From: an endosymbiont of Bathymodiolus septemdierum str. Myojin knoll
Lineage (GTDB): Bacteria; Pseudomonadota; Gammaproteobacteria; PS1; Pseudothioglobaceae
Length of the DNA stretch: 64,000 nucleotides
Assembly (NCBI RefSeq): GCF_001547755.1
Contig: NZ_AP013042.1
Span: forward strand, 1,178,001-1,242,000
Reading direction: 5' to 3'
Below the pieces are notes generated by a model. That model was not told the origin of the DNA and ran no database searches. It saw only the letters and a list, made by a program, of their open reading frames with translations. Below are positions 2,741 to 8,631 of this stretch, in pieces. The position numbers and the translations under genes were made by a program. Within the stretch, counting starts at the first letter, position 1. Each line of letters starts with the position of its first letter.

Positions 2741-3520
2741 ATGACTGACACAGCTTTAATCATTGCAGGAAAAACTTACAACTCGCGCCTGCTGGTTGGT
2801 TCAGGAAAATATAGCGACCTTACCGAAACCAAACTGGCAACAGAAGCAGCAGAAGCAGATATTATCACCGTTGCCATTCGTCGTACTAATATCGGTCAAG
2901 ATGCCAACGAACCTAACTTACTTGATGTTGTGCCACCAGAAAAATATACCATTTTGCCCAATACAGCAGGCTGTTATAGCGCCAAAGATGCGGTGCGCAC
3001 TTGCCAATTAGCACGCGAACTTTTGGGTGGTCACAATTTGGTTAAACTCGAAGTATTGGGTGACGAAAAAACCCTTTACCCGAATATTGTAGAAACCTTA
3101 GCTGCTGCAAAAATTTTAGTCGCAGATGGCTTTGATGTGATGGTTTACACCAGTGACGACCCCATTATTGCCAAAGAATTAGAAAACATCGGTTGCTGTG
3201 CAATAATGCCCCTCGCTTCACTCATCGGCTCAGGACAAGGTATTGCCAATCCTGCTAATATTAAACTCATTAAACAAAACGCCAATGTACCCGTACTCAT
3301 TGATGCAGGCATTGGCTGCGCATCAGATGCCGCCAAGGCAATGGAATTGGGCTGTGATGGGGTATTAATGAACTCAGCTATTGCCAACGCCAAAAACCCA
3401 GTACTAATGGCAAGCGCAATGAAGCACGCTGTTATCGCCGGTCGTGAATCTTTCCTTGCTGGCAGAATGATGAAAAAAGCCTATGCTTCCGCTTCATCAC
3501 CTATGGAAAATTTAATTTAA
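2741..3520 (+). CDS. thiG: thiazole synthase
   Basis: ThiG forms the thiazole phosphate of thiamine from deoxyxylulose phosphate, dehydroglycine and sulfur delivered on ThiS thiocarboxylate. The 259-aa protein has the family landmarks: [10 protein letters not shown] near the N-terminus, [19 protein letters not shown], the active-site lysine region [16 protein letters not shown] (about residue 100), [14 protein letters not shown] and [25 protein letters not shown]. It is complete. Its last 62 codons are duplicated at 4121-4321. The sulfur carrier gene thiS is 46 kb away. Confidence 0.96.
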
Positions 3521-3534
3521 GTTAGGTGGAATGA
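3334..3534 (+). repeat. 201-bp direct repeat, copy 1 (3' end of thiG)
   Basis: This stretch, running from inside thiG to 14 bases past its stop, matches 4121-4321 at 194 of 201 positions by eye. All seven differences are transitions. The toxin-antitoxin pair lies between the copies. Homology ends abruptly on both sides. Confidence 0.93.
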
Positions 3535-3552
3535 TTTGTTAGACGATCTGCA

Positions 3553-3792
3553 TTACTTATAAATATCACCTCTACTATCAACTTTTAATATTTGTATTTT
3601 CTCTTCATTCATATGAAATAAAATTCTATATTTTGATATTCTTATTCTATAAATTGGAGGTGTGTCATTACCTGTTAATCTTTTAACATCCCCATTTGGT
3701 AAATTTTGAATCGCATTAAATATTTTTTCTTGAAGTTTTTTATCATATTTGAAAAACTTCTTTTCAAAAGTTTTAGAAAATGATATCTTCAT
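3553..3792 (-). CDS. RelE/ParE-superfamily toxin
   Basis: A 79-aa protein of the RelE/ParE fold, whose members are mostly ribosome-dependent mRNA interferases or gyrase poisons. It has the typical N-terminal FSKTFEKKFFKYDKKLQEKI helix, the turn GDVKRLTGN, then IYRIRISKYRILFHMNEEKIQILKVDSRGDIYK with the conserved YRIR...YRILF strands and a C-terminal VDSRGDIYK. The start ATG overlaps the antitoxin stop by 4 bases. The pair is strongly AT-rich and sits between duplicated thiG ends, indicating acquisition. Confidence 0.88.
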   Translation of the reverse strand: MKISFSKTFEKKFFKYDKKLQEKIFNAIQNLPNGDVKRLTGNDTPPIYRIRISKYRILFHMNEEKIQILKVDSRGDIYK

Positions 3793-4037
3793 AAGTTAAA
3801 TTTATTTTTAAACTCTTTATTTGAAGTAAATTCATCACTTGCTAATATTGATAAAATTTCTTTTTCATCATCTGCTTCTAATATTAAATTAGTTTGTTCT
3901 TTTATTTTAGTGTTTTTTGAAAGATATTCTCTAAGACTTTCTCTAATCATGGCGGATATTGATTTCTTTTCTATAAAACCTACTGCTCTAGCCTGTTCAT
4001 ATAGCGCTTCATCTATTGTTAAATTTAATCTATGCAT
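3789..4037 (-). CDS. ribbon-helix-helix antitoxin
   Basis: An 82-aa partner of the toxin. The N-terminus [20 protein letters not shown] fits a ribbon-helix-helix DNA-binding domain (beta strand RLNLTID, then two helices to about residue 45). The acidic C-terminal tail would wrap the toxin. A good Shine-Dalgarno AAGGAAAT lies just upstream. The gene order (antitoxin first, 4-base overlap) is that of type II modules, which repress their own promoter. Confidence 0.88.
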
Positions 4038-4054
4038 AATTATTTCCTTTATAG

Positions 4055-4074
4055 TGATGTATTGATGTATTATA
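4055..4074 (-). promoter_or_regulatory. putative autoregulatory operator of the first toxin-antitoxin pair
   Basis: Two tandem 8-mers TGATGTAT (4055-4062 and 4063-4070) overlap a minus-strand -10 box TATAAT (complement of 4069-4074), about 32 bases upstream of the antitoxin ATG. Tandem short repeats at the promoter are what ribbon-helix-helix antitoxins commonly bind; the binding itself is inferred. Confidence 0.5.
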
Positions 4075-4120
4075 TCATAGACTTTTTAGCAGTCGAACTT
4101 TTTAATTTCGGTCAAAATGA

Positions 4121-4321
4121 CAAGACAATGGAATTGGGCTGTGATGGGGTATTAATAAACTCAGCCATTGCCAACGCCAAAAACCCAGTACTAATGGCAA
4201 GCGCAATGAAGCACGCTGTTATCGCCAGTCGTGAATCTTTCCTTGCTGGCAGAATGATGAAAAAAGCCTATGCTTCTGCTTCATCACCTATGGAAAATTT
4301 AATTTAAGTCAGGTGGGATGA
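4121..4321 (+). pseudogene. thiG: 3' fragment of thiG (direct repeat copy 2)
   Basis: This is the second copy of the thiG 3' end: [19 protein letters not shown] through the native stop at 4307 and 14 bases beyond. It lacks the first three-quarters of the enzyme and cannot be functional. An upstream frame makes it look like a 91-aa ORF from 4032, but that start lies in the promoter of the antitoxin. Relative to the full gene it has Met to Ile and Gly to Ser changes and five other transitions. Confidence 0.9.
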
Positions 4322-4360: not shown

Positions 4361-4705
4361 TTATTTCCTTTGAAATTGGGTTACGATGTTTTGTTTTATT
4401 TTAGTGGATGAATTTCTTGGACTGTATTTTATTTGAACTACTTTTTTACCTTGTGTGTTGAAATAATTTTCCACATCTTGATTATGAGGCTTCCTACCCC
4501 AGTCTTCTCCAATAACAAAAATATCTGCTTTAACCTCTTTACAAACAGAAAGATAATCCAGCTCATGGTACGGAAGTACGATATCCACACAGCGAAGTGC
4601 TTTGAGCATTTCAATACGCTGTTCAAGTGGTATGGCAGGAACATTAGGTTTGTATAATTTAACCACCTCATCAGAAGCAACACCCACAGCAACCTTACTG
4701 CCTAA
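4361..4705 (-). pseudogene. truncated cytidylyltransferase-fold nucleotidyltransferase
   Basis: The frame reads KALGSKVAVGVASDEVVKLY, then PLEQRIEMLKALRCVDIVLP, DIFVIGEDWG and a complete C-terminus. This is the distal two-thirds of a TagD/glycerol-3-phosphate cytidylyltransferase-like enzyme. The N-terminal nucleotide-binding part with the GTFDxxHxGH motif is absent. The break coincides exactly with the GTTAGGC core of attC at 4700-4706, so the missing half was replaced by integron sequence. A GTG at 4687 could start a 108-aa remnant, but it lacks the catalytic motif. Confidence 0.85.
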
Positions 4706-4796
4706 CGCCTTGCTCAGCGGCAGTTTAAAGGGGCGCGTTTTTGCGTAAGCAAAAAAAGTGACGCTTTAAACTGTCCGCTGGAGCTATTTGTTATGC
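4700..4796 (-). other. attC: attC recombination site of integron cassette 2
   Basis: Read on the minus strand, the site begins with R'' GCATAAC (4796-4790) and ends with R' GTTAGGC (4706-4700). Between them the arms AGCGGACAGTTTAAAG and CTTTAAACTGCCGCT pair with one unpaired base, as expected of attC. It starts 11 bases after the stop of the HEPN gene. The outer core GGCATAAC pairs with GTTATGCC at the other end of the cassette, which defines a complete cassette. Confidence 0.92.
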
Positions 4797-4807
4797 CATA
4801 TTTAGGA

Positions 4808-5866
4808 TTAATCATCTTTATCCCAATCTGCGTTGCCATCACAGTGATTACAACCAGCCCAATGACTATGTTCCATATCACCAGTGTTAGGCTCGTTACA
4901 CCAGCCACACCGCTGAAGTGACTCAAGAACTAAAAAACAACTTGCACAAACATATTTATCATTTTCGGTTCTAACAACGGTATGATAGCCATCGCAATCA
5001 CTACAATTACCCATATCCCAAGAGTCATCACCATCCATTGCTGCAACATGGGCAGCACCATCATCTATTTCAGATGCTAAATCTTCTGGCTCGAATCTCT
5101 TACCGCAATTGTCGCATTGCCCAAAACCCTCGTTTTCGAAAACTACTTCTGTGGAGCAATCAGGGCATTCAATTTTGATGCATTTTTCAGAGAGACCGCA
5201 AACTAAACAGTTTGCATTATATATTTCTTTCAACTCATCTTCGTGCTCTTGTGAGTCAAATCCACAAGAAGGACACGACTTAAATATTAGCCCGCTTAGT
5301 TTTTTATTTTTTATATCAGATGATATCTGGTCATAAATAACTTGTAAAAACGAATGTGATTTCCTTAACTCTTTATCAATATTAGCTACACCTGTTTTCC
5401 ATGGTTCAAATACTTCACGCCACCGTTCAGTAATTAACTTGTGCAAAAAATACCATGCGGTTAATTGTTGTTTAACTATATCTCTTAGTTGTTCTTCATT
5501 TTCTTCTTCACTGTGCGCCTCATGAAAAAAGTGAACCATTTTATTTCTGTGCTTTGTTATTTCACGAAAAACCGACAGTTCTTTGGTTAGACCGCTTCGC
5601 ACTATCTTTGTTAATCTATCTGATGCACCATCAAGCGAAACAGATTGAAAATTACCTGAAACAAATTTATTCCAATCTGGTTCTTGCCTGTGAGAAATGA
5701 CAAGAGTCCAATGCTCCGCCATAAGTCTTGCTTTAAGGAATAATTCGACAGCAGCATGAAAATGGATAACAGAATACTTTGGTTGCTCAGTTAACTCAGA
5801 AATAGCCTTTTCTAGGAAGTCTAATCCATTTTTTACAAGTCGCTCTAACATTACATCCTTATTCAT
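4808..5866 (-). CDS. HEPN-domain protein with multiple zinc ribbons (integron cassette 2)
   Basis: A 352-aa protein carried alone on an integron cassette. The N-terminal 155 residues are helical and contain RNKMVH (residues 107-112), the Rx4H motif of catalytic HEPN ribonucleases, after a helix of HEPN type (KYSVIHFHAAVELFLKARL). The C-terminal half has eight CxxC pairs (198/201, 220/223, 234/237, 251/254, 288/291, 307/310, 320/323, 339/342), enough for about four zinc ribbons, in an acidic background. HEPN nucleases are common in toxin and antiphage systems; that role here is inference. A frame opens at 5899, but that TTG lies within attC; ATG 5866 behind AAAGGG is the likely start. Confidence 0.8.
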   Translation of the reverse strand: MNKDVMLERLVKNGLDFLEKAISELTEQPKYSVIHFHAAVELFLKARLMAEHWTLVISHRQEPDWNKFVSGNFQSVSLDGASDRLTKIVRSGLTKELSVFREITKHRNKMVHFFHEAHSEEENEEQLRDIVKQQLTAWYFLHKLITERWREVFEPWKTGVANIDKELRKSHSFLQVIYDQISSDIKNKKLSGLIFKSCPSCGFDSQEHEDELKEIYNANCLVCGLSEKCIKIECPDCSTEVVFENEGFGQCDNCGKRFEPEDLASEIDDGAAHVAAMDGDDSWDMGNCSDCDGYHTVVRTENDKYVCASCFLVLESLQRCGWCNEPNTGDMEHSHWAGCNHCDGNADWDKDD

Positions 5867-5887
5867 TTCTACCCTTTTGTTTTTTTG

Positions 5888-6021
5888 GCATAACGGCAAT
5901 CTTGAGGGACAAGGTAAATTAACGGCTTTGTAATTTGATATTTCAAATATCTAAATGCGACACTTAAAAGCTTGATATTTTCGCCACTTTTACCTTGTTC
6001 CTCTCCTAGTATTTGTTATAG
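5888..6021 (-). other. attC: attC recombination site of integron cassette 1
   Basis: On the minus strand, R'' CTATAAC (6021-6015) opens two bases after the DUF805 stop and R' GTTATGC (5894-5888) closes the site. Arms AACAAGGTAAA and TTTACCTTGT pair, with an inner palindrome GATATTTGAAATATC near 5936-5952. At 134 bp it is a long attC of the chromosomal-integron type. Confidence 0.9.
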
Positions 6022-6022
6022 T

Positions 6023-6385
6023 TTATTCTGTAGGTGTTATAACTTTTGGATTTTCTCCGTATTGATTAGCTTCTTCATCACTATCTTTTGTAGTCCAAAT
6101 AATAATTAATATCCAACCTAAAATAGGTACAATAGCAATTAATTGCCACCATCCACTTCTGTTAATGTCATGCAGTCTTCTTATCATAACACCAATATAT
6201 GGTAATAAAACAGCTAATGCATAAATTAATCCTATTATTCCAAGCCCACTTCCTATTACTGCATCTAATATGCTACAAATAATTGTAGCTATTATATTAA
6301 ATAATGTGAAATACCAATATTCTGACCTTGTTGCTCTACCATTAAAAACGGTATATTTTTTCAGTACTTCTAAATACCAATTCAT
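6023..6385 (-). CDS. DUF805 membrane protein (integron cassette 1)
   Basis: A 120-aa DUF805 protein: MNWYLEVLKKYTVFNGRATRSEYWYF, then hydrophobic segments at about residues 26-50, 52-66 and 80-95, with MIRRLHDINRSGWW between the last two, the family signature. DUF805 genes are frequent integron passengers of unknown function. The start is set by an excellent Shine-Dalgarno AGGAGAAC at 6 bases from ATG 6385; the frame is open further upstream to 6433. As the first cassette next to attI it should be the best-expressed one. Confidence 0.88.
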   Translation of the reverse strand: MNWYLEVLKKYTVFNGRATRSEYWYFTLFNIIATIICSILDAVIGSGLGIIGLIYALAVLLPYIGVMIRRLHDINRSGWWQLIAIVPILGWILIIIWTTKDSDEEANQYGENPKVITPTE

Positions 6386-6439
6386 TTGTTCTCCTGTTTT
6401 GTTTTTTTCTAAATAATTACATTTTAAGCTCATCTTGAA

Positions 6440-6587: not shown

Positions 6588-7550
6588 ATGGCAAAAAAAT
6601 TATTAGAGGTTGTTAGAGACAAAATCCGTTTAAGGCATTATAGTTATCAAACTGAAAAAACTTATCTTGGCTGGATAAAGAGATACATTTTATTTCACGA
6701 TAAAAAGCACCCAGAAAAAATGGGTAAGATTGAGATTGAAGCATTTTTGACTGATTTGGCCGTTAATCGCAAGGTTTCTCCATCAACGCAAAATCAGGCA
6801 TTTAATGCTTTGTTATTTTTGTATGAAAAAGTTTTGGAAATTTCCATTAAAAATGAAAATATCTCTGCTTTGCGAGCAAAAACTAAAATTCATATTCCTG
6901 CTGTTTTGACCAAAGACGAAGTTAAAAATGTGATTTTTAACAGCAAAGGGGTTTATCAATTAATGCTTAAACTTATGTATGGTTGTGGCTTGCGGATGAG
7001 TGAATTGTTGCGTTTGCGGATTAAAGATATTGATTTTGGTTTTGATAAAGTTTATATCTGGGATGGTAAAAGTCAAGAAGATAGGGTGTTGCCCTTGCCA
7101 CAAAAAATTAAGGAAGATTTGCAAATTCATATTGAAAATGTGCGGAAAACGCATAAACAAGATACGATTGACGGCTTTGGCTATGTTAATTTACCTTTTG
7201 CACTTAATAAAAAATATCCGAATGCTAATACTGAGTTTAAATGGCAATATTTATTCCCAATGAACGCAATTTCACAAGACCCGAGGGGTAAGAGGAAAAT
7301 TCGCTATCATGTGTTGTCTGCTACTTTTGGCAGGAATATAAAAACAGCGGCGCGTTTGGCGTATATTGATAAAAAAATATCCGCCCATACTTTTCGCCAT
7401 TCTTACGCAACACATTTATTACAAAACGGTATTGATATTCGCACAATTTCTGGGCTTTTGGGGCATAAAAATCTACAAACTACGATGATTTATACGCATA
7501 TTGTTAAAGAATTAAATCAAAATATTGTTAAAAGCCCGTTAGATTTTTAA
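6588..7550 (+). CDS. intI: integron integrase (tyrosine recombinase)
   Basis: A 320-aa tyrosine recombinase that would recombine attC and attI sites. Catalytic residues R136, K161, H267, R270, H293 and Y302 are each exactly ten positions earlier than R146, K171, H277, R280, H303 and Y312 of IntI1. The integron-specific extra domain is present at about 189-240 (NANTEFKWQYLFP). It is complete, with no frameshift. It reads away from the cassettes, the standard arrangement. XerD at 42521 lacks this insertion, which separates the two. Confidence 0.95.
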   Translation: MAKKLLEVVRDKIRLRHYSYQTEKTYLGWIKRYILFHDKKHPEKMGKIEIEAFLTDLAVNRKVSPSTQNQAFNALLFLYEKVLEISIKNENISALRAKTKIHIPAVLTKDEVKNVIFNSKGVYQLMLKLMYGCGLRMSELLRLRIKDIDFGFDKVYIWDGKSQEDRVLPLPQKIKEDLQIHIENVRKTHKQDTIDGFGYVNLPFALNKKYPNANTEFKWQYLFPMNAISQDPRGKRKIRYHVLSATFGRNIKTAARLAYIDKKISAHTFRHSYATHLLQNGIDIRTISGLLGHKNLQTTMIYTHIVKELNQNIVKSPLDF

Positions 7551-7557
7551 AAAATTT

Positions 7558-8631
7558 ATGAACTTTACACAGCAACTTACTCATATTAAAAACCAACACC
7601 TTTACCGGCAAGTGAAAATTGCCGATGGGTCTTGTGTGGATTTTTGTTCGAATGATTATTTGGGGTTAAAAAATCACCCAAAAGTGATTAAGGCGTTTAA
7701 ACAAGGGGTGGATAAATTTGGTGTGGGCTCGGGGGCGTCGCATTTAATTAATGGACATACGACGGCGCATCAAGAATTAGAAGAAGCGTTATCGGATTAT
7801 ATAGGGGTAGAAAAAACCCTATTATTCTCAACTGGGTATATGGCAAATATTGGTGTGTTTTCTGCGCTCAAAAGTGAATTGGATTGGGTCTTGCAGGATA
7901 AGCTCAATCATGCGTCACTCATTGATGCCAATCATTTGATTGGCTTGCCACTCAAGCGCTATTTGCATACTGATATTGCATCACTTGAGAAGAAAATTGA
8001 TAGGCAAACTGGGCAAGGCTTGATTGTAACCGATACAGTATTTAGCATGGATGGAGATCAGGCGGATATTATTGCACTCGAAAAAGTTGCAAAAAAATCT
8101 GATGCACTACTTATGCAGGATGATGCCCATGGATTTGGTATTTTTGATACAAATATCCCGAAAAATTCTATTTATATGGCAACTTTAGGTAAGGCAGCAG
8201 GCGTTATGGGGGCTTTTGTGGGGGGAAATATAGATTTTATTGATTTTTTGGTGCAAAAATCACGCCCTTACATTTATACTACAGCGATTGCACCTGCTTT
8301 ATGTGTGGCAACGCTTCAAAGTTTAGAACTGATTAAAAGCGGCGAGCAAAGGGCCAAATTATTAGAAAATATTGATTTCTTTCAAAAGTTTTCACACTCA
8401 CTATCATTACCGATTTTGCCATCAGATAGTGCAATTCAACCTTTAATAATTGGCGACAACAAACAGGCTTTATTGCTTAGTCAGACACTACTTGAAAAAG
8501 GCTTTCAAGTAAGTGCCATTCGCACGCCAACGGTTGCCAAAAACGCAGAAAGATTGCGCATTACTTTGAATGCCAATCATACACAAAAACAAATAGAACA
8601 GCTGCTTAGCGAAGTAAAATATGCTTTATAG
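7558..8631 (+). CDS. bioF: 8-amino-7-oxononanoate synthase
   Basis: BioF condenses pimeloyl-ACP with alanine in biotin synthesis, using PLP. The protein (357 aa) has VDFCSNDYLGLKNHP, GSGASHLINGHTTAHQELE, the D-D-H of QDDAHGFGIF and the PLP lysine in YMATLGKAAGVMGAFVGG. It is slightly shorter than the approximately 385-aa enteric enzyme. It begins 7 bases after intI with no visible promoter, so it may depend on read-through, and it overlaps bioH by 11 bases. Biotin is needed by OadA at 21001-22833. Confidence 0.94.
   Translation: MNFTQQLTHIKNQHLYRQVKIADGSCVDFCSNDYLGLKNHPKVIKAFKQGVDKFGVGSGASHLINGHTTAHQELEEALSDYIGVEKTLLFSTGYMANIGVFSALKSELDWVLQDKLNHASLIDANHLIGLPLKRYLHTDIASLEKKIDRQTGQGLIVTDTVFSMDGDQADIIALEKVAKKSDALLMQDDAHGFGIFDTNIPKNSIYMATLGKAAGVMGAFVGGNIDFIDFLVQKSRPYIYTTAIAPALCVATLQSLELIKSGEQRAKLLENIDFFQKFSHSLSLPILPSDSAIQPLIIGDNKQALLLSQTLLEKGFQVSAIRTPTVAKNAERLRITLNANHTQKQIEQLLSEVKYAL

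What the first reader, a model, noticed from the sequence alone, without database searches (positions are those of the whole stretch)
3334..4321. Toxin-antitoxin pair flanked by a 201-bp duplication of the thiG 3' end
Seen: 194/201 identity between 3334-3534 and 4121-4321, every difference a transition, with a toxin-antitoxin module between. The repeat includes 14 bases past the stop. Inference: the module arrived by homologous recombination carrying a donor thiG end, or by a duplicative insertion, leaving thiG intact, a strategy similar to integration at tRNA 3' ends.
Basis: partly seen in the sequence, partly recalled or inferred. Interest (0 to 1): 0.65.

Follow-up and report, generated by a model that had tools for sequence, protein, structure and literature searches.

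The report
Integron toxin-antitoxin cassette at thiG end
A toxin-antitoxin gene pair sits exactly at the end of a vitamin B1 gene in a bacterium related to deep-sea mussel symbionts, apparently put there by a gene-capturing integron; the extra copy of the gene's tail beside it is a decaying by-product, so this is a neat but mostly explicable piece of genome shuffling.

Summary
The repeat is real: 194/201 identical, seven transitions, with a ParE-type toxin-antitoxin pair between the copies. An integron integrase lies at 6588-7550, with attC hairpins and a minus-strand cassette array between it and thiG. The "14 bases past the stop" belong to one arm of an attC site. The remnant at copy 1 (24 bases) matches a short attC family of this genome; five sites with its exact core are complete. 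Best reading: an integron-derived cassette joined thiG exactly at its stop codon and left thiG intact. Its attC lost half, which should immobilise it, and a 201-bp piece (thiG end plus attC remnant) was later copied to the other side. Copy 2 is decayed: three of five coding differences change conserved residues. Five other attC-bearing regions of this genome have no such flanking repeat, so the duplication is probably a separate event. Templated insertion, tandem duplication plus deletion, or one-sided recombination cannot be told apart from one strain. By-product: the mfd stop codon is a recurrent cassette junction in the genus.

The parts
2741..3520 (+). thiG, intact, 259 aa
   Evidence: PF05690 358 bits; orthologues in relatives
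3334..3534 (+). repeat copy 1 (thiG 3' end plus 14 bases of attC remnant)
3521..3544 (-). half of an attC site (R''-L'' box and one arm) abutting the thiG stop codon; the other arm and the R' box are missing
   Evidence: aligns with complete attC sites of this genome; its 15-mer core is at 7 places in the genome; does not fold, MFE 0
3553..3792 (-). ParE-type toxin, 79 aa
   Evidence: PF05016 E 2.3e-7, over cut-off
3789..4037 (-). antitoxin, 82 aa, overlapping the toxin by 4 bp
   Evidence: CcdA and DUF6364 matches below cut-off
4069..4096 (-). promoter-like site TCGACT-16-TATAAT in front of the antitoxin (consensus match only; the region has 2 such matches, shuffles 4.9 on average)
4121..4321 (+). 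repeat copy 2: decayed thiG 3' end (4121-4307) plus attC remnant (4308-4321)
4361..4687 (-). 5'-truncated cytidylyltransferase (HldE/TagD-like) fragment, joined at or near G^TTAGGC to the next attC
   Evidence: PF01467 36.4 bits
4700..4796 (-). attC site, long hairpin type
   Evidence: z -6.4; 92% similar stretch at C1:816258-816333
4808..5899 (-). cassette gene with Cys-rich (zinc-ribbon-like, read by eye) C-terminus
   Evidence: only a sub-threshold Pfam match
5885..6016 (-). attC-like imperfect palindrome
   Evidence: z -3.9, folded stretch 5882-6016
6023..6433 (-). DUF805 membrane protein cassette gene
   Evidence: PF05656 109.9 bits
6588..7550 (+). integron integrase intI, 320 aa, catalytic motifs present
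   Evidence: TIGR02249 398.9 bits, cut-off 265; IntI4 structure 2a3v E 4.8e-75; motif positions
7558..8631 (+). bioF, downstream of thiG in 8 of 18 relatives' regions; marks the far edge of the inserted block
   Evidence: family PF00155 (the name bioF is recalled)

Best explanation
The toxin-antitoxin pair is the remnant of an integron gene cassette that an integron integrase joined to the chromosome exactly at the thiG stop codon: on the minus strand the crossover G^TTA uses the TTA that is the reverse complement of thiG's TAA. thiG therefore stayed intact. The cassette's attC then lost its inner half and R' box up to that crossover point, which should make it immobile. Later a 201-bp stretch (187 bp of thiG end plus 14 bp of attC remnant) was copied to the far side of the pair. 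The most economical way is a single templated insertion at a break; the alternative is tandem duplication of the 787-bp unit and loss of the second toxin-antitoxin copy. Copy 2 has since drifted without selection. Shown: integrase, attC family, the same attC-arm/thiG-stop junction at both copies, its position at the stop codon, conserved residues changed in copy 2. Inferred: that IntI made the junction, the order of events, and the copying mechanism.
For: Integrase over the curated cut-off, close to the Vibrio integron integrase 2a3v. attC hairpins beside it. The 24-nt remnant matches the 5' half of five complete attC sites of the same genome; its 15-mer core TAACAAATCATTCCA occurs exactly 7 times in 1.47 Mb, and with up to 2 mismatches 18 times against 5 for the reversed control. 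Both copies show the same attC-arm|thiG-stop junction, so that junction predates the copying. In 8 of 18 relatives' regions bioF lies downstream of thiG, and none of the 18 gave a match to the pair or to a second thiG end. In this genome a single cassette also ends exactly at the mfd stop codon. No flanking duplication in five other attC-bearing regions. Copy 2: A, M and G replaced where 76/78, 78/78 and 76/76 relatives have them; 3 of 5 nonsynonymous gives p = 0.021 against the rate in ten relatives, which are not independent of each other.
Against: The attC is incomplete, so the cassette nature rests on 24 nt (15 of them an exact core). The cassette's 5' boundary (a TTRRRY start after a G) is not seen at the 4114-4120 junction. 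The attC sites next to intI are of a different, longer type, so this intI need not be the one that acted. Of the two complete short sites folded, one beats its shuffles (C1:10186, z -3.4) and the mfd one does not (z -0.4; 58 of 200 shuffles fold as well). Homologues of the pair in two Thioglobus-type genomes, and a degraded one in a third, show no attC of this family, so the family also lives outside integrons. A crossover exactly on the stop codon of a long gene is not general: 3 of 58 pattern rows, all at mfd. No second strain could be examined.
Confidence: 0.62

Rival explanations
1. One-sided (homology-facilitated illegitimate) recombination with DNA from a sister strain: crossover in thiG on one side, end-joining on the other, so that the donor thiG end and toxin-antitoxin pair were added in front of the recipient's own thiG end. 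This is closest to the first reader's idea.
For: Explains a direct repeat of the anchor gene with strain-level divergence (7/201) in one event. recA is present. Such recombination is described in competent bacteria and in E. coli conjugation (start of the abstract of PMC3240628 in the listing).
Against: Both copies share the attC-half junction, so the recipient must already have carried and then lost the cassette. Copy 2 has changes at conserved residues, so at least part of the divergence is probably later decay.
Confidence: 0.22
2. Assembly artefact: two strain haplotypes of a mixed symbiont population were joined end to end, so one thiG end was written twice.
For: Related mussel symbiont populations are known to be strain-diverse (recalled). 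The divergence of 3.5% is of strain size.
Against: Copy 2 is not a plausible functional allele (conserved A, M and G changed). Copy 2 and copy 1 stop matching at once on both sides, with no long overlap. The genome is a single contig with completeness 100.
Confidence: 0.08
3. The pair arrived on an insertion sequence or other transposable element and the attC resemblance is chance.
For: In three genus members (G004, G005, G006) short IS-like ends follow the thiG stop (reading by eye). The one in G006 resembles part of the remnant (by eye).
Against: None of the seven thiG-to-intI proteins scanned is a transposase, and no inverted repeat of 70 nt or more is reported in the window; no dedicated transposon search was run. 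The attC match is exact over 15 nt, at 7 places of which 5 are complete attC sites. The integron integrase is next door.
Confidence: 0.05

Closest known systems
Integron gene cassettes carrying toxin-antitoxin pairs (chromosomal integrons such as that of Vibrio cholerae; background recalled, passages of PMC11023631 seen)
   Same: Small co-oriented gene unit in a cassette array beside intI, followed by attC-type sequence
   Different: attC reduced to one half, cassette start not recognisable, and a host gene end on both sides
Cassette insertion at non-classical attG sites (Loot et al. 2024, Nat Microbiol; seen only as a reference and in passing mentions in PMC11023631, PMC12901181 and PMC12444791)
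   Same: attC joined to a chromosomal G^TT-type point away from attI (the G^TT rule is recalled)
   Different: Here a natural genome, at a stop codon; IntI action inferred, not shown
Fused cassettes with partial or total loss of attC (PMC4670013, start of the abstract in the listing)
   Same: attC deletion fixes a cassette to its neighbour
   Different: Fusion is to a chromosomal gene end, not to another cassette
CALIN elements at conserved chromosomal positions in Xanthomonas (PMC12444791, passages seen)
   Same: attC sites without a neighbouring integrase, at recurrent loci
   Different: Here several single attC sites, and at mfd the crossover coincides with the stop codon
Homology-facilitated illegitimate recombination (PMC3240628, start of the abstract in the listing)
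   Same: Would give a direct repeat of an anchor gene around added DNA
   Different: Not needed for the junctions seen; untested here

Membership tests
Integron (complete) | integron-type tyrosine recombinase | tested here: met
   TIGR02249 398.9 bits over 265; 2a3v E 4.8e-75; motifs GLRMSELLRL, SAHTFRHS and LLGHKNLQTTMIYTH
Integron (complete) | attC sites with gene cassettes oriented away from intI | tested here: met
   attC 4700-4796 and palindrome 5885-6016; genes 4808-5899 and 6023-6433 on minus
Integron (complete) | attI site next to intI | not tested
   no attI model used
Integron gene cassette (the toxin-antitoxin pair) | complete attC downstream of the genes | tested here: not met
   only the R''-L'' half, 24 nt; so called a cassette remnant, not an active cassette
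Integron gene cassette (the toxin-antitoxin pair) | R''-L'' part of attC matching the genome's attC family | tested here: met
Integron gene cassette (the toxin-antitoxin pair) | cassette start TTRRRY after a G at the other end | tested here: inconclusive
   not seen at 4114-4120, read by eye; that end is joined to thiG copy 2
Cassette insertion at an attG-type site | crossover at a chromosomal G^TT-type point (recalled) | tested here: inconclusive
   junction at ^TTAAATT (reverse complement of the thiG end); a preceding G is not present, on this reading lost with the attC half
Type II toxin-antitoxin, ParE toxin superfamily | ParE-family toxin with an upstream overlapping small gene | tested here: met
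   PF05016 over cut-off; 4-bp overlap; the partner has no family match over cut-off
Type II toxin-antitoxin, ParE toxin superfamily | toxicity neutralised by the antitoxin | not testable with these tools
   needs expression in a laboratory strain
Homology-facilitated illegitimate recombination | donor and recipient alleles recognisable in the two copies | not testable with these tools
   no second strain of the species found among the genomes searched (one genome per species)

The most novel reading that the evidence does not exclude
In this genus of marine symbionts the integron integrase has used the 3' ends of housekeeping genes (mfd repeatedly, thiG once) as chromosomal attachment sites. 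The gene's own stop codon supplies the TTA of the G^TTA crossover, so cassettes can come and go without breaking the gene, much as tRNA-gene ends serve tyrosine integrases. Half-attC deletion then locks useful cassettes, such as a toxin-antitoxin pair, in place.
Probability: 0.3. Interest if true: 0.6.

Novelty: new member of a known kind. Interest (0 to 1): 0.4.

Why it matters
It replaces a vague 'toxin-antitoxin island with a thiG duplication' by a concrete, testable integron history in a deep-sea symbiont genus. It also points to natural examples of cassettes placed outside the array at gene ends; insertion at such non-classical sites has been shown with cassette libraries in E. coli (as reported in a passage of PMC12444791).

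Tried and rejected
Tandem repeat of a mobile element: not supported; none of the proteins scanned between thiG and bioF is a transposase and no inverted repeat of 70 nt or more is reported. Second genomic source of thiG copy 2: none; besides thiG itself only stretches of about 20 bases match it. General rule 'cassette insertion duplicates the target gene end': not supported, no direct repeats of 40 bp or more other than attC itself in five other attC-bearing regions, four with the short type and one with the long. General rule 'attC ends at stop codons': not supported, 3 of 58 pattern rows, all mfd (the rows include loose matches that are plainly not attC, none removed). Homologues of the pair as cassettes elsewhere: no attC of this family beside them in L223-L225. 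Missing 5' half of the cytidylyltransferase: the own genome gave one place for the C-terminal query, and the partner gene only a 33% match elsewhere. The paper on the presumed genome (DOI 10.1038/ismej.2015.176, recalled) is not held. The loose half-site scan gave mostly noise in its first part and its output was cut; beyond one by-eye remark on G006 only its mfd part is used.

Full report
Observation. The repeat is exactly where it was described: 3334-3534 and 4121-4321, 201 nt, 194 identical, seven transitions. It is the only repeat of 70 nt or more reported in the window. Copy 1 is the last 187 bases of an intact thiG (2741-3520; PF05690 358 bits) and 14 bases beyond. Between the copies lie two overlapping minus-strand genes: a ParE-type toxin (3553-3792, PF05016 over its cut-off) and a small antitoxin gene (3789-4037) with only sub-threshold resemblance to CcdA and DUF6364.

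What was missed. The gene at 6588-7550 is an integron integrase: 398.9 bits against a cut-off of 265 for TIGR02249, and the best solved relative is the Vibrio integron integrase 2a3v (E 4.8e-75). Its conserved arginine, histidine and tyrosine motifs are present (which residues are catalytic is recalled). The genes I describe between it and thiG run on the minus strand, away from it. Between them stand an attC hairpin at 4700-4796 (MFE z-score -6.4) and a weaker palindrome at 5885-6016 (z -3.9). So the block between thiG and bioF is an integron. In 8 of 18 relatives' thiG regions bioF lies downstream of thiG (340 bp in G002, more in the others), and none of the 18 gave a match to the toxin-antitoxin pair or a second thiG end; some of the 18 end early. 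The closest thiG relatives are named as Thiodubiliella and other Bathymodiolus thiotrophic symbionts; that the window itself is the B. septemdierum symbiont is my recollection of the genome size (1,469,434 bp).

The bases past the stop. On the minus strand the toxin gene is followed by GTCTAACAAATCATTCCACCTAAC and then directly by the thiG end. Five complete attC sites of about 55 bp elsewhere in this genome (C1:10186, 441272, 885997, 887736, 1462801) begin the same way and continue with the second arm and a GAATTCAAGCG-type end before the crossover. A sixth, at 462580, has a degenerate core, and one at 887018 is itself truncated. The 15-mer TAACAAATCATTCCA occurs exactly seven times in the genome; with up to two mismatches 18 places against 5 for the reversed control. 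At thiG the site stops in the middle of the hairpin: what is missing is everything from the hairpin tip to the crossover point, and the DNA resumes at TTA, the reverse complement of thiG's stop codon. The remnant no longer folds. As a caution, of two complete short sites folded, C1:10186 beats its shuffles (z -3.4) and the mfd site does not (z -0.4). Copy 2 has the same junction; its arm reads CCACCTGAC as at C1:10186, and it has lost the base (TCATTCC to TCATCCC) on which the five complete sites agree. The junction therefore existed before the copying.

Copy 2 has decayed. Of five coding differences, three are amino-acid changes (A to T, M to I, G to S) at residues conserved in 76 of 78, 78 of 78 and 76 of 76 relatives (78 of the 80 loci gave ungapped alignments; one relative has the same A to T change). 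In the same region, codon differences to ten close relatives are 41 nonsynonymous and 257 synonymous, giving p = 0.021 for three or more of five (the relatives are not independent). This speaks against an assembly join of two working alleles. It also means that divergence between the copies is probably in part later decay, not only donor divergence.

How the duplication arose. Insertion of a cassette does not by itself duplicate the target: in five other attC-bearing regions of this genome there is no direct repeat of 40 bp or more except attC itself. Three routes remain: a templated insertion of 201 bp (one event); tandem duplication of the 787-bp unit with loss of the second pair (two events); one-sided recombination with a sister strain (needs a recipient that had already lost the cassette). 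recA is present, so none is excluded. I prefer the first two. Homologous recombination between the copies would delete the pair and one copy, so the arrangement should be unstable unless loss of the antitoxin is penalised; that is inference.

Supporting case and its limits. In this genome a single cassette with a complete attC ends exactly at the stop codon of mfd (L193:2353; TRCF and MFD_D3 domains). Ahead of the cassette stands a pfkB-family kinase gene; the same kinase abuts mfd, with no cassette, in G011 and within about 60 bp in G005, while in G001 and G009 some 570-670 bp separate them. attC sites end exactly at the mfd stop also in G007, in G008 (degenerate) and in G006 (internally shortened); a half site lies there in G003 and a possible remnant in G005; none is seen in G002, G004, G011, G001, G009 or G010 (12 genomes). 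The ORFs ahead of the sites differ between genomes. Outside the genus none of the 19 loci printed shows it, read by eye; one search covered 60 genomes, but only the 30 best loci were kept. Against generality, only 3 of 58 pattern rows have the crossover on a stop codon of a long gene, all mfd.

A second IntI-like junction. The truncated cytidylyltransferase at 4361-4687 begins, by homology to the intact gene of G011, at or within a few bases of the TTAGGC of the neighbouring attC's G^TTAGGC. Its upstream partner in G011, a CDP-alcohol phosphatidyltransferase, has only a 33% match in this genome. This looks like an attC joined into the interior of a gene.

Prior work. Searches for integron with Bathymodiolus symbiont, with Thioglobus and attC (first 12 of 495 listed), and for stop codons, secondary sites and mfd listed no paper whose title describes this; only listings were read there, in an open-licence library. 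Insertion of cassettes at attG sites is known (Loot et al. 2024, seen as a reference and in passing mentions). So is cassette fusion by attC loss (start of the abstract of PMC4670013). The finding is a new member of known kinds, with an unusual host-gene duplication.

Noticed in passing
L193:2302-2353 (C1:1462801), L231, L233, L236, L234: The mfd stop codon is a recurrent integron-cassette junction in the genus: attC ends exactly there in 4 of 12 genomes (one degenerate, one internally shortened), plus a half site in one and a possible remnant in another, with different ORFs ahead of it.
   Followed up: partly
4361-4706: Cytidylyltransferase gene truncated at or near an attC crossover point (G^TTAGGC); in G011 (L196) the intact gene sits near attC sites and broken integron-integrase pieces.
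   Followed up: partly
L191:3998-5737: Three attC sites, one truncated like the thiG one, around a HicA toxin gene (PF07927) with a small partner gene that has no Pfam match.
   Followed up: partly
L195:3259-3334 (C1:816258-816333): Stretch 92% like the long-type attC at 4700-4796, overlapping the 3' end of a C-5 cytosine DNA methylase gene (PF00145).
   Followed up: no
genus genomes: Near-identical short attC sites are scattered through many members of the genus, including G002 and G011, which have no integron integrase match over the cut-off.
   Followed up: partly
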